A stretch of DNA of 42,000 bases from Rheinheimera sp. (GTDB lineage Bacteria > Pseudomonadota > Gammaproteobacteria > Enterobacterales > Alteromonadaceae): contig DPJG01000020.1 of the NCBI GenBank assembly GCA_003543135.1, positions 1-42,000 of the forward strand, in the 5' to 3' direction. Of the stretch, positions 14,273-17,731 are shown one piece after another. The translations under genes and the position numbers were made by a program. A model generated the notes under the pieces. It was not told where the DNA came from. It saw nothing but the letters and a program-made list of their open reading frames with translations, and did not search any database. Position 1 is the stretch's first letter. Each line of letters starts with the position of its first letter.

Positions 14273-14824
14273 TTACTCTCCGAGTAAGTCTTTACGCCAA
14301 TCAGTCTGTTCCAGTTTGGCCAGTGGATCTAAATCTTCGTCGTCTTCATCTTCGTCCAGATCTAAACCTAACAACGTCAGCAGCTCAGCATGGCGGGCGG
14401 TTTTGGCGTTAAAGTATTTGGCGTCTTTGCCGGTCAGAATCTCACCCTGCTCGGTGCGCTCTAATAATTCCGCCAAGCGTTCATCCTGCTCAATTTGCGC
14501 CAGCTCAACTTCAGGGGCAATTTCCACTGGTTTAGCTTTTGCCAGTACAGCTTTGGGTTGGGTGGCAGGTGCCAGTAATTTTTGCTCGGCAACAGTCACA
14601 ACCAATGGAATAGGCTTTTTACTGCCGATGCGTGGATCTTTGTTTTTGCTGCCGCTGCTTTCGGTTTTATCAGCCTGCACTAAAGCGTTACGGCTGCCGG
14701 ATTTTAAGCCTGCACCTTTTTTCTTGGTTTCTACCGGACGGTCACGTTCCTGGCGGGCTTCTGCAGCCGGTTTATGCCTGATACCTATCTGGCCTGAGGT
14801 CCGTGATTTTTTTTTGCGAGTCAT
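14273..14824 (-). CDS. yihI: Der GTPase-activating protein YihI
   Basis: Protein of 183 residues, a regulator of the ribosome-assembly GTPase Der (EngA). The very basic N-terminus (MTRKKKSRTSGQIGIRHKP) and a C-terminal acidic segment (DLDEDEDDEDLDPLAKLEQ) are the family's hallmark. AGGT precedes the ATG by seven bases. It is followed at seven to sixteen bases by the DUF2489 gene, so they are probably cotranscribed. The neighbourhood with a CsrC-type RNA, engB, spf and polA is like that of E. coli yihI. Confidence 0.92.
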   Translation of the reverse strand: MTRKKKSRTSGQIGIRHKPAAEARQERDRPVETKKKGAGLKSGSRNALVQADKTESSGSKNKDPRIGSKKPIPLVVTVAEQKLLAPATQPKAVLAKAKPVEIAPEVELAQIEQDERLAELLERTEQGEILTGKDAKYFNAKTARHAELLTLLGLDLDEDEDDEDLDPLAKLEQTDWRKDLLGE

Positions 14825-15001: not shown

Positions 15002-15040
15002 AAAAAAAACAAAACGGCAGTAAGGGTTGCCTACTGCCGT
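15002..15040 (-). terminator. Intrinsic terminator of the CsrC-type RNA
   Basis: Stem ACGGCAGTA/TACTGCCGT (15014-15022 and 15032-15040) with a nine-base loop, followed on the minus strand by TTTGTTTTTTTT. It is over 170 bases upstream of yihI and no protein gene ends there, so it marks an independent RNA gene. Confidence 0.9.
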
Positions 15041-15296
15041 CAAAGTGTTGCACTCAAAGGTGCTGAATTTTTGCATATCGTCCTGACTTACGTGAGACAC
15101 CCTGTCTGGACAGTTTCCCTATATTGTTAGGTCATTTCCCTATTTAAATAATTATTCGCGATCGTCCTAATACTTTTTAGCTCTTCCATGGATCGCGTTA
15201 AAAACGCTGCATCAGTCATGATGCTTTTTTAATTAGCTAGCACTATTGCTGTCCGTGCATATTGTCCGTTTTGTTGAGTTGTTACAATCTGTAACG
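15002..15296 (-). ncRNA. csrC: CsrB/CsrC (Rsm)-type CsrA-sequestering small RNA
   Basis: Predicted RNA of about 295 nt. Read on the minus strand it has seven GGA motifs, including AGGGA twice and AGGACGA twice, several in or beside short hairpins. This is the signature of RNAs that titrate the translational regulator CsrA. It begins with a GTTACA-GAT-TGTAAC hairpin and ends in a strong intrinsic terminator. A promoter (TTGCCA-N16-TAAATT) precedes it and a GacA/UvrY box lies about 175 bp upstream. E. coli csrC occupies the equivalent place between yihA (engB) and yihI. The symbol rests on synteny and motifs, not on an alignment, and the exact ends are estimated. Confidence 0.8.
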
Positions 15297-15302
15297 GGGT
15301 TT

Positions 15303-15330
15303 AATTTACTCCGATCCGGCGGAATGGCAA
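15303..15330 (-). promoter_or_regulatory. Predicted promoter of the CsrC-type RNA
   Basis: -35 TTGCCA (15330-15325), 16-base spacer, -10 TAAATT (15308-15303), placing the start near 15296. Confidence 0.5.
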
Positions 15331-15462
15331 TACTGTGATCAAAAAAAAATCACAAAAAAACTGAACTATTTTCAACAGTCAAATTAAATCAGTTAGTTAG
15401 CACAATTAATGAGATGAGTTTGCGAAATTTGGAAGTGTTTTTGGGTTTTTATCTTACGTTTC

Positions 15463-15480
15463 GTGTGAGATATATCTCAC
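15463..15480. promoter_or_regulatory. GacA/UvrY response-regulator box
   Basis: TGTGAGATATATCTCACA is a perfect 18-bp palindrome. It differs at few positions from the known UvrY/SirA site upstream of E. coli csrB (TGTGAGAGATCTCTTACA) and fits the Pseudomonas GacA box (TGTAAG-N6-CTTACA). Its distance of about 175 bp from the predicted RNA start is the usual one. The half sites are eight bases apart, which argues against a CRP site (six). Confidence 0.8.
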
Positions 15481-15523
15481 AACCAACAAAGAATATTCAG
15501 TAGTAATATCAGCTTCGACACAT

Positions 15524-15569: not shown

Positions 15570-16211
15570 TTAATGTAAACCACCGAGGTATTTAGAGATG
15601 GTTTCAATATCTTCGTCGGTCAGTTTTTTCGCTACATCGCGCATCATGCCATTCATGTCATTGGCACGGGTGCCAGCACGGAATGCTTCCAGCTGAGTTT
15701 TAATATAAGCAGCATGCTGGAAGGAAATTTTCGGGAAGTTTGCCAGGCTATGACCCACGCCACGAGGACCATGACAAGCGATACAAGCTGCGATACCACG
15801 GTTCATATCACCAGCACGGAATAATTTCTGACCTGCTTCAACCACGTCTTCCGGTGTTGTGCCTGATTTCATCGTCTGACTGGAATAAAAAGCAGCCAGA
15901 TCCAGCATGTCCTGTTCTGACAGAGCGGCAACCATACCGGCCATTACGGCGTTATTACGGCCTTCTTTACCACCGCTGCTCATGCCCAGTTTAAATTCTT
16001 TTAATTGTTTAAAGATATAACCAGCATGTTGACCGGCAATTTTTGGATACATATCAGTAGGGCTGTTACCGTCTGGACCATGACAGGCGGCACAAGTGGC
16101 AGATTTAGCTTTACCTGCTTCTGCATTACCAACCGGAGCTGTTGTTTCTGCAGCAACAGCCTGACCGGCCAACCCTAAAAAAAGCATGACTGGAAGTGCG
16201 AATTTTTTCAT
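15570..16211 (-). CDS. Diheme cytochrome c4
   Basis: Periplasmic electron carrier of 213 residues with a signal peptide (cleavage near AVA/AE, residues 20-21). Two heme c sites are present: CAACH (Cys40-His44) and CIACH (Cys143-His147). The two halves are homologous (each with HGPxG and QHAxYI), as expected for class I diheme c4, which passes electrons from the bc1 complex to terminal oxidases. Single gene with its own terminator, divergent from engB across 181 bases. Confidence 0.95.
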   Translation of the reverse strand: MKKFALPVMLFLGLAGQAVAAETTAPVGNAEAGKAKSATCAACHGPDGNSPTDMYPKIAGQHAGYIFKQLKEFKLGMSSGGKEGRNNAVMAGMVAALSEQDMLDLAAFYSSQTMKSGTTPEDVVEAGQKLFRAGDMNRGIAACIACHGPRGVGHSLANFPKISFQHAAYIKTQLEAFRAGTRANDMNGMMRDVAKKLTDEDIETISKYLGGLH

Positions 16212-16392: not shown

Positions 16393-17025
16393 GTGTACAA
16401 AGCAAAATTTAATTATCAGCAGACCAGTTTTTTAACCAGCGCCCCGGATATTACAGCTCTGCCGCCAGATACCGGCATTGAAGTTGCATTTGCTGGCCGG
16501 TCAAATGCAGGTAAATCCAGTGCTTTGAATACATTAACCCGGCAAAACAATTTAGCCCGTACCAGTAAAACGCCGGGTCGTACTCAGCTGATTAACACTT
16601 TCCGCCTGGCCGATAATAAACGTCTGATCGATTTGCCAGGTTATGGTTTTGCTAAAGTGCCGCTGACGGTGAAAGAAAAATGGCAAAAATCGCTGGGTGA
16701 ATATCTGATGAAACGTCAGAGTCTGAAAGGCCTGGTGGTATTAATGGATATTCGTCATCCGTTAAAAGATTTAGATCAGCAACTGATCCACTGGGCGGTA
16801 GAAAGTGATTTGTCGGTGTTATTACTTTTGACCAAAGCAGACAAACTAAGCCCTGGCCCGCGGAAAAAAACCTTACTGGAAGTTCGTGAAGCTTCATTGG
16901 CTTTTATGGGGGATATCACAGTGCATACGTTCAGCTCGCTTAGTAAACAAGGCTTAACTGAGTTAGAACAGGTGCTTGACGATTGGTATAGCCGCGACGA
17001 CGAGAGCCAGCTTTCGGCTGAATAA
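16393..17025 (+). CDS. engB: Ribosome-biogenesis GTPase EngB (YihA/YsxC)
   Basis: Small essential-type GTPase of 210 residues acting in 50S subunit assembly. It has G1 GRSNAGKS (35-42), the switch PGRTQ (61-65), G3 DLPGYG (80-85) and G4 TKAD (about 146). The GTG start follows CGGAG by about six bases. Monocistronic with its own terminator, convergent toward the RNA genes and polA. Divergent from cytochrome c4. Confidence 0.96.
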
Positions 17026-17040
17026 TTCTGTAGCGCAATT

Positions 17041-17070
17041 GGCGATCGTTATACAAGATCGCCTTATTTA
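17041..17070 (+). terminator. Intrinsic terminator of engB
   Basis: Stem GGCGATC/GATCGCC with a nine-base loop followed by TTATTTA, 15 bases past the stop codon. Confidence 0.7.
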
Positions 17071-17142
17071 GCAGCTATCCCATGACAGTCCGCAAAATCC
17101 GCTTTATTCACTGCACTGCTTAAAACCAGATTTTATCCCGTT

Positions 17143-17240
17143 AAAAAAAGAAAAACCGGCGTCTCAGAGAGAGGCCGGTATAGCAAACGGGGAGAAGCTA
17201 TCAATAATTTCAAATCAACAGGGTGTCTTCAGAGAAGACG
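17143..17240 (-). ncRNA. Candidate small RNA downstream of Spot 42
   Basis: Independent transcription unit predicted on the minus strand, about 95 nt. A perfect -10 TATAAT (17251-17246) lies just upstream; the -35 is weak. The RNA would begin at a hairpin GTCTTC-TCT-GAAGAC (17225-17239). It continues through a single-stranded stretch containing CTTCTCCCCG, which can pair with Shine-Dalgarno sequences. It ends in the hairpin ACCGGC...GCCGGT (17155-17179, inner TCTC-TCT-GAGA) followed by TTTTTCTTTTTTT. It has no start codon with a ribosome-binding site and no coding frame of note. I do not recognise the family. Confidence 0.6.
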
Positions 17241-17315
17241 CTGCCATTATACATAGCTTTTTGCTGATTTAAAGTATTTGCTCTAAAAAATCTAATTAAG
17301 TTTCAAATTTTGGAT

Positions 17316-17432
17316 AAAAAAAACGCCCCACTGCAAGCAGTGGGGCGGCTAAATAAGCCTACTTTCTATGCGGATTCAGGATTTAACTCCTAAAACTGCC
17401 GAAAGATAGAACATCTTACCTCTGTACCCTAC
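17316..17432 (-). ncRNA. spf: Spot 42 small regulatory RNA
   Basis: About 117 nt. The 5' end (GTAGGGTACAGAGGTAAGAT, then GTTCTATCTTTC) is essentially identical to E. coli Spot 42. The 3' end, AGCCGCCCCACTG-CTTG-CAGTGGGGCG followed by eight T, matches the Spot 42 terminator. The central part differs, as usual between genera. Spot 42 is an Hfq-dependent RNA that represses secondary carbon-utilisation genes when cAMP-CRP is low. The position beside polA and engB is the conserved one. Confidence 0.95.
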
Positions 17433-17440
17433 AGTTTTTG

Positions 17441-17468
17441 ATTTTACTGCGACGAGTTCAAAAAGCAA
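17441..17468 (-). promoter_or_regulatory. Spot 42 promoter
   Basis: -35 TTGCTT (17468-17463), 16-base spacer, -10 TAAAAT (17446-17441), eight bases before the conserved first G at 17432. No convincing CRP palindrome was seen next to it. Confidence 0.6.
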
Positions 17469-17608
17469 GCGCATTTTGTAATAAAACTACATAAATTTGA
17501 TTTTGTTTTTATTTTTACGCTGATTCGTAATTAAGTTACGAGCTTAAATGCCCTAAACTTCAGATGTTGTGGGGATCGTCAGATGCATGTTTGTTGTATG
17601 GCGGGTAG

Positions 17609-17640
17609 AAAAAAGCCCCGCTCATTCAATTGCGGGGCTT
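17609..17640 (-). terminator. Intrinsic terminator of polA
   Basis: Stem AAGCCCCGC/GCGGGGCTT with a ten-base loop, followed by a T-run on the minus strand, about 90 bases after the polA stop. It separates polA from spf. Confidence 0.88.
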
Positions 17641-17731
17641 AAAGGTGAATTACCAGGAATGGGTATGCTCACGGCTAAACAGACTAAACCTGGGAAAATA
17701 AGTTCAATCAATTTCTATACTTAATATGCTT

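What the first reader, a model, noticed from the sequence alone, without database searches (positions are those of the whole stretch)
15002..15480. CsrB/CsrC-type RNA with its own GacA/UvrY box between yihI and cytochrome c4
Seen: a perfect 18-bp palindrome close to the UvrY/GacA site; about 175 bp further a promoter; then about 295 nt with seven GGA motifs and an intrinsic terminator, with no protein gene. Known: GacA/UvrY activates CsrB/CsrC/Rsm RNAs from such distal sites, and E. coli csrC lies next to yihI. The primary sequence seems divergent and the AGGGA/AGGA sites are few compared with E. coli CsrB, so homology searches may miss it.
Basis: partly seen in the sequence, partly recalled or inferred. 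Interest (0 to 1): 0.8.

Follow-up and report, generated by a model that had tools for sequence, protein, structure and literature searches.

The report
CsrC-like RNA sponge beside yihI
This stretch of a Rheinheimera genome very probably encodes a small RNA that soaks up the regulator protein CsrA, a counterpart by position of the E. coli RNA CsrC that standard RNA-family searches miss.

Summary
On the minus strand of a Rheinheimera genome, between a cytochrome c4-like gene and yihI, lies a non-coding RNA gene of about 295 nt with seven GGA motifs, an intrinsic terminator, a weak but conserved promoter, and a perfect UvrY/GacA palindrome (15464-15481) centred about 176 bp before the predicted start. 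Seven GGAs alone are unremarkable (5.4% of shuffles reach it); their conservation is not: all seven are kept in 22 of 22 congeneric genomes, while the base before most of them varies. The strict box pattern occurs at two places in this 4.0-Mb genome; the other fronts a csrB-like RNA with 34 GGAs. CsrA, UvrY and BarA are encoded. E. coli csrC also lies beside yihI. Rfam CsrB and CsrC do not match this RNA, but a model built here finds relatives beside yihI across the family and order, including Pseudoalteromonas, where it is probably Pf3, a published CsrA-binding RNA. Best reading: a UvrY-activated CsrA-titrating RNA at the csrC position, a new member of a known kind in a lineage that curated models overlook. 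Transcription, UvrY control and CsrA binding are untested here.

The parts
15464..15481 (-). UvrY/GacA-type 18-bp palindrome TGTGAGATATATCTCACA, centred about 176 bp upstream of the predicted start
   Evidence: conserved in the genus
15341..15360 (-). two T-tracts (T7 and T9), centres 12 nt apart, just upstream of the -35; possible UP element or bent DNA (inference)
   Evidence: two or more T-tracts in 21 of 22 loci; the 22nd is cut by its contig end
15303..15330 (-). predicted sigma-70 promoter TTGCCA-16-TAAATT
   Evidence: (9 of 12), conserved block in relatives
15002..15300 (-). CsrC-like non-coding RNA, about 295 nt (start predicted near 15296-15300)
15281..15295 (-). 5' hairpin GTTAC-loop-GTAAC, stem invariant in 22 sequences while the loop varies
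15265..15267 (-). GGA site 1 (ACGGAC)
   Evidence: 20 of 22 in the exact columns, 22 of 22 within 3 columns
15252..15254 (-). GGA site 2, in the loop of a GCAC/GTGC hairpin
   Evidence: GGA in 22 of 22
15185..15187 (-). GGA site 3 (ATGGAA)
   Evidence: 22 of 22, preceding base only 41% conserved
15165..15167 (-). GGA site 4 (TAGGACG) in a short hairpin loop
   Evidence: GGA in 22 of 22
15137..15139 (-). GGA site 5 (AGGGAA)
   Evidence: 22 of 22
15116..15118 (-). GGA site 6 (AGGGAA)
   Evidence: 22 of 22, preceding base 55% conserved
15081..15083 (-). GGA site 7 (CAGGACG) in a short hairpin loop
   Evidence: GGA in 22 of 22
15147..15176 (-). conserved core AAAGTATTAGGACGATCGCGAATAATTATT around site 4
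   Evidence: its 12-mer GATCGCGAATAA is exact in 19 of 20 loci L060-L079 and in none of L080-L139
15013..15041 (-). intrinsic terminator, 12-pair stem and T run
14273..14824 (-). yihI (Der GTPase-activating protein), downstream neighbour as in E. coli csrC
   Evidence: NF003560, 137 bits, cut-off 90
   Evidence: PF00034 80.9 bits, two stretches
16393..17025 (+). engB/yihA-type GTPase, next neighbour, as beside E. coli csrC
   Evidence: PF01926 66.7 bits; the name engB rests on place and recall

Best explanation
A CsrB/CsrC-type RNA at the csrC position. Proposed mechanism: when BarA phosphorylates UvrY, UvrY-P binds the distal palindrome and, perhaps helped by the T-tract-rich DNA before the promoter, activates transcription of a ~295-nt RNA ending at an intrinsic terminator. 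The RNA shows CsrA up to seven GGA sites, three of them in short hairpin loops of the consensus fold, takes up a few CsrA dimers and so frees CsrA-bound mRNAs. It works beside a larger csrB-like RNA elsewhere in the genome, with 34 GGAs and the same box. Shown here: the elements, their conservation, synteny and genomic context. Inferred: transcription, UvrY activation, CsrA binding and titration.
For: All seven GGAs kept in 22 of 22 Rheinheimera genomes (on average 21.7 of 22 sequences keep a GGA, 10.7 for any trinucleotide, p = 1e-5 by resampling; the sequences are related, so p is rough). Opposite strand has 0-3 GGA. Box in 19 of 22 loci by a loose pattern; the other three are two with a mismatch at the last base (L007, L013; read) and one cut contig (L011). 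The only other strict box in the genome fronts a csrB-like RNA (RF00018 41.9 bits, E 6e-10, below gathering); in 21 of 21 genomes with a box at such a second locus the richer side has 21-43 GGAs. CsrA, UvrY (357.5 bits, cut-off 280) and BarA (1081 bits, cut-off 890) are present. Gene neighbours match E. coli csrC. Model R1 matched 45 of 61 yihI loci outside Rheinheimera at E up to 1 (18 at E up to 0.01), all on the yihI strand within 966 nt upstream (one of the 45, L079, was in the training set, and most are Pseudoalteromonas). E. coli csrB carries its palindrome at -183/-182 (PMC4682653, passages). Pseudoalteromonas Pf3, probably the same locus, binds CsrA (PMC11882849, sections 6 and 7 and passages).
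Against: GGA number alone is close to chance. Rfam CsrB and CsrC give no match at this locus in 22 of 22 genomes at E up to 1 (within the tool's first look). GGA exposure in predicted folds is only modestly high (mean unpaired probability 0.54 against 0.45 for other trinucleotides; in the window sequence sites 1 and 7 are partly paired). The fold is only moderately more stable than shuffles (5 of 200 fold as well) and about as stable on the other strand (z -2.33 and -2.05). The GGA hairpins show only one-sided pair changes. In S. oneidensis a predicted csrC at another place was not UvrY-dependent (PMC3171408, passages), so a csrC label does not guarantee UvrY control.
Confidence: 0.92

Rival explanations
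1. A 5' leader or attenuator of yihI: the conserved RNA is the start of the yihI mRNA and regulates yihI rather than CsrA.
For: It lies upstream of yihI on the same strand in 22 of 22 genomes and in the window ends in a terminator before the gene.
Against: In many relatives another gene (215 codons in L013, methyltransferase-like by eye) sits between RNA and yihI and the RNA is still conserved. The pattern of invariant GGA with varying neighbours fits CsrA binding. An antiterminator was not searched for.
Confidence: 0.04
2. The palindrome is a site for another regulator such as CRP and the RNA is not UvrY-controlled.
For: TGTGA and TCACA are CRP half-sites (recalled), and CRP controls CsrC in Salmonella (PMC7591399, start of abstract in the listing).
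Against: The half-sites are 8 bp apart where canonical CRP sites have 6 (recalled), while the site fits TGTAAG-N6-CTTACA (PMC4682653, passages) except for one base change in each half. Only two places in the genome carry it and both front GGA-rich RNAs, unlike a global regulator. In five other genomes of the genus seven further matches lie at neither locus (not followed up).
Confidence: 0.05
3. A small protein gene or an antisense transcript explains the conservation.
For: ATG-started frames of up to 48 codons exist in single relatives, and a piece like SIRTIANNY or SIRMIANNY recurs where the conserved core is read in one frame.
Against: 8 of 22 sequences have no ATG-started frame of 20 codons or more, and others read the core in a different frame (GTG and TTG starts not tested there). 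The alignment has indels not in threes. The opposite strand has few GGAs, although a hairpin with a T run could also end a plus-strand transcript.
Confidence: 0.02

Closest known systems
E. coli CsrC (Rfam RF00084)
   Same: Same place between engB/yihA and yihI, same strand as yihI, similar length (246 nt), GGA-rich, distal UvrY site; both contain ACAGGGTGT (seen by eye, may be chance).
   Different: Seven GGAs here, 14 in E. coli csrC. No match to RF00084. The palindrome is perfect here and of weaker symmetry in E. coli csrC. A cytochrome c gene lies between RNA and engB.
CsrB/RsmB (Rfam RF00018)
   Same: AGGA(C/T)G motifs and a UvrY palindrome near -180 (the CsrB motif is recalled).
   Different: Far fewer sites; the model does not match here, but matches the other RNA of this genome below its threshold.
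Pseudoalteromonas fuliginea Pf3 (PMC11882849; sections 6 and 7 and passages read)
   Same: Pf3 has 9 GGAs; the yihI-linked RNA has 9 in 22 of 36 mostly Pseudoalteromonas loci and AATAA-rich stretches. The paper says Pf3's zebrafish matches hold TAA- or AAT-rich repeats. The Rheinheimera-based model matches the yihI-linked RNAs.
   Different: That Pf3 is the yihI-linked RNA is my inference; its locus tags were not mapped. The paper names one bacterium outside the genus with a Pf3 match, Thalassotalea.
Alteromonas Aln1a-c (PMC5864184; passages read)
   Same: CsrA-sequestering RNAs proposed in Alteromonas, the most highly expressed genes of that data set.
   Different: Three RNAs from one 404-nt intergenic region; whether this is the yihI locus was not tested.

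Membership tests
CsrB/CsrC-type CsrA-sequestering RNA | Intergenic non-coding RNA with intrinsic terminator | tested here: met
   that it is transcribed is not shown
CsrB/CsrC-type CsrA-sequestering RNA | Multiple GGA motifs under selection | tested here: met
   seven sites kept in 22 of 22; number alone not significant
CsrB/CsrC-type CsrA-sequestering RNA | GGA motifs displayed in hairpin loops or single strands | tested here: inconclusive
   modest exposure; hairpins at sites 2, 4, 7 kept with only one-sided changes
CsrB/CsrC-type CsrA-sequestering RNA | UvrY/GacA box upstream of the promoter | tested here: met
CsrB/CsrC-type CsrA-sequestering RNA | CsrA, UvrY and BarA encoded in the genome | tested here: met
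CsrB/CsrC-type CsrA-sequestering RNA | Binds CsrA and relieves its repression | not testable with these tools
   needs gel shift or co-purification; in print for the probable relative Pf3
CsrB/CsrC-type CsrA-sequestering RNA | Transcription depends on UvrY | not testable with these tools
   box present only
Rfam CsrC RF00084 | Scores over the gathering threshold of 61 bits | tested here: not met
   no match at the locus in 22 of 22 genomes at E up to 1
Rfam CsrB RF00018 | Scores over the gathering threshold of 71 bits | tested here: not met
   no match at the locus; the other RNA of the genome gets 41.9 bits
csrC by gene position | Lies between engB/yihA and yihI, reading towards yihI | tested here: met
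   a cytochrome c gene intervenes on the engB side
csrC by descent from the enteric gene | Detectable sequence homology to enteric CsrC | tested here: inconclusive
   model R2 gives E 0.036 upstream of yihI in one Budvicia (L131), 0.55 (partial) in L138 and 0.94 in L133, none there in the other Budvicia (L120) or in K-12; matches of E 0.5-1.8 also fall at unrelated places

The most novel reading that the evidence does not exclude
The yihI-linked RNAs of Rheinheimera, Alishewanella, Pseudoalteromonas, Alteromonas and the enteric bacteria are one ancient csrC gene that stayed in place while its sequence drifted beyond the reach of curated models. In Rheinheimera and Alishewanella a core of about 30 nt around GGA site 4, with a related form in Pseudoalteromonas and Alteromonas, is conserved well beyond the GGA itself, more than a plain sponge needs, and may serve a second role such as a nucleation site for CsrA or a recognition or cleavage site for regulated decay.
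Probability: 0.3. Interest if true: 0.55.

Novelty: new member of a known kind. Interest (0 to 1): 0.4.

Why it matters
It indicates that a CsrA sponge at the csrC position is conserved across Rheinheimera and many relatives although Rfam release 15 at its gathering scores matched none of the non-enteric ones tested here, so Csr circuits in environmental gammaproteobacteria are easily missed. It offers a simple finding rule (look beside yihI, look behind UvrY boxes), and it probably links the Pseudoalteromonas RNA Pf3 to the classic CsrC.

Tried and rejected
Rfam at gathering and at E up to 10 gave no Csr/Rsm family at the locus; the gathering scan of L009, L012, L016, L005, L008 and L030 also gave nothing. 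RF00018 and RF00084 searched over the 22 genomes gave 41 and 33 matches at E up to 1, none at yihI; some RF00084 matches elsewhere reach E 6e-6 (G003:C16) and were not followed up. GGA number against shuffles was not significant by itself. Single-strand folding gave z -2.33 for the RNA strand and -2.05 for the other, so it does not tell the strands apart. A test of GGA strand bias in ORF-free segments upstream of yihI over 80 named loci (78 with a segment) was weak: the yihI segment had the largest bias in 49 of 78, partly because chance frames masked the RNA. Covariation in the GGA hairpins was absent beyond G-U changes; RNAalifold's 9 of 43 doubly changed pairs lie in other stems, including the terminator, and some may be misaligned. 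CsrD: no protein over the NF008281 cut-off, best 313 of 663 bits. R2 also weakly matches the csrB-like RNA of this genome (E 0.014 and 0.019), so weak R2 hits are not specific to csrC. One search also read two yihI loci (L042, L054): in 900-nt stretches they show no GGA excess. A CRP site, a yihI leader and a small ORF were set aside (see rivals). Dropped rows: L020 was left out of alignment A3 because of its duplication; R2 was built from 49 chosen loci, of which 47 matched.

Full report
What was checked. The window comes from a Rheinheimera genome: the nearest relatives of its yihI are Rheinheimera strains, the closest Rheinheimera sp. 4Y26 at 98%. The finding lies on the minus strand between yihI (14273-14824) and a cytochrome c gene (15570-16211).

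Observation. The palindrome TGTGAGATATATCTCACA is at 15464-15481 and perfect. It fits the UvrY consensus TGTAAG-N6-CTTACA except for one base change in each half (PMC4682653, passages read); its TGTGA and TCACA halves are 8 bp apart, not the 6 of CRP sites (recalled). In 4.0 Mb the strict pattern occurs at two places. The predicted promoter (15330-15303) is weak by consensus but conserved. The RNA of about 295 nt has seven GGAs and a strong terminator. The GGA number alone is not significant: shuffles average 4.03 and 5.4% reach seven.

Conservation. A relative was found in 22 of 22 genomes of the genus, beside yihI in 22 of 22, with cytochrome c seen in 19 of 22 within the fetched stretch (not in L005, L007 and the short contig L011). 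The RNAs, taken as 296-324 nt, carry 7-9 GGAs and 0-3 on the other strand. All seven window GGAs are kept in 22 of 22 within 3 alignment columns (20-22 in the exact columns), while the base just before them is kept in 41-100%. In L020 a 21-nt insertion, by eye a tandem duplication, adds one more AGGGA site. No ATG-started frame of 20 codons or more is shared by all 22 sequences.

Structure. In the consensus fold sites 2, 4 and 7 lie in small hairpin loops that are kept almost always, but with one-sided changes only. GGA has a mean unpaired probability of 0.54 against 0.45 for other trinucleotides, second among 23 trinucleotides with two G or C. This is modest support.

Regulation. The box centre lies 125-126 or 141-142 nt upstream of the -35 in 16 of the 17 loci where both were located, and 115 nt in L015 (the five others lacked one element in that script). 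This puts the window's box about 176 bp before the predicted start; E. coli csrB has it at -183/-182. Six of 22 loci have two boxes 22 bp apart by a loose pattern. Two T-tracts with centres 10.5-12.5 nt apart lie just before the -35 in the 21 loci that could be read; they may act as an UP element or bend (inference).

The rest of the circuit. CsrA, UvrY beside uvrC and BarA are encoded. CsrD is not called over its cut-off. The second box of the genome fronts a minus-strand RNA of about 551 nt (start assumed) with 34 GGAs and 2 TCCs, which matches Rfam CsrB below gathering (41.9 bits, E 6e-10). In the genus, 21 of 22 genomes have a second box of this kind, and on the richer of its two sides 21-43 GGAs against 1-12 TCCs in up to 900 nt. 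The genomes have 1-5 strict matches each; seven matches, in five genomes, lie at neither locus and were not followed up. An RF00018 match lies at the second-box locus in 20 of 22 genomes; G019 has none there and G021 has one without a strict box. Neither RF00018 nor RF00084 matches at yihI in the 22.

Wider family. E. coli K-12 csrC lies in polA-spf-yihA-csrC-yihI-hemN. Here the order is polA, engB, cytochrome c, RNA, yihI, a DUF2489 gene, an amidohydrolase gene and a HemN-type gene. Model R1, built from 21 Rheinheimera sequences and one Alishewanella, matched 45 of 61 yihI loci outside Rheinheimera at E up to 1 (18 at E up to 0.01), all on the yihI strand within 966 nt upstream. The 16 misses include 8 of 9 enteric loci and one locus with 4 nt upstream. 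These 61 are part of the best 80 of 170 loci found. In the family R1 matched 41 of 147 genomes, and 15 of 15 loci inspected lie beside yihI. R2, built from 47 matches, found 64 of 295 genomes of the order; of 27 loci inspected, 26 have yihI within the fetched stretch and the 27th has the methyltransferase-like gene, cytochrome c and engB. Genomes without a match are not proof of absence, since stricter filters were used and divergence is high. Whether enteric CsrC is homologous in sequence stays open: R2 gives E 0.036 upstream of yihI in one Budvicia, nothing there in another and nothing in K-12. Among 14 named loci scanned, Rfam CsrC rang in one of three enteric ones (L135; not L120 or L126) and in none of the 11 others.

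Link to published RNAs. Pseudoalteromonas fuliginea Pf3 has 9 GGAs, an active promoter, CsrA binding by gel shift and enrichment in CsrA RIP-seq (PMC11882849, sections 6 and 7 and passages). Upstream of yihI in loci L081-L118, mostly Pseudoalteromonas, stretches of up to 390 nt ending at the terminator hold 8-11 GGAs, 9 in 22 of 36, with AATAA-rich stretches (two of 38 lacked the terminator pattern). I infer that this is Pf3; the locus tags were not mapped. On print: three papers hold both Rheinheimera and CsrA, none of the papers listed first holds Rheinheimera, small RNA and CsrB together, two hold yihI and csrC; seen as listings only, none is about this RNA by its title. Most subscription papers are not held.

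Verdict. A CsrA sponge at the csrC position under a UvrY box: the class is known, the member is new, and the curated RNA models miss it. Shown: sequence, conservation, synteny, circuit genes. Inferred: transcription, activation, binding, titration.

Noticed in passing
L030 780-1333 minus strand (own genome, contig C5 about 76.8-77.4 kb): A csrB-like RNA with 34 GGAs, by eye in imperfect repeats of about 60 nt, behind the only other UvrY palindrome of the genome, between an ammonium transporter gene and a Dyp-type peroxidase gene; sub-threshold Rfam CsrB match.
   Followed up: yes
L020 (RNA at 1366-1689, minus): A 21-nt insertion, by eye a tandem duplication, has added another AGGGA site, showing how site number can grow.
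   Followed up: partly
L012, L014, L019, L021, L022, L023, upstream of the RNA: Two UvrY-type boxes 22 bp apart, about two helical turns, in 6 of 22 Rheinheimera loci.
   Followed up: partly
window 15341-15360: Two T-tracts about one helical turn apart just upstream of the -35, present in all 21 readable loci; UP element or bend.
   Followed up: partly
L013 772-1417 minus and the same place in many relatives: A methyltransferase-like gene (named by eye) lies between the RNA and yihI in part of Rheinheimera and in much of the order, and is missing in the window.
   Followed up: partly
G006:C71:334484, G010:C48:3603, G011:C1:286, G011:C147:20099, G013:C32:93395, G013:C51:30199, G014:C9:2634: Strict UvrY-pattern matches at neither of the two RNA loci; possible further UvrY targets or chance.
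   Followed up: no
window 17026-17731: The spacer between engB and polA, where E. coli has Spot 42, holds hairpins with T or A runs by eye but no Rfam match.
   Followed up: no
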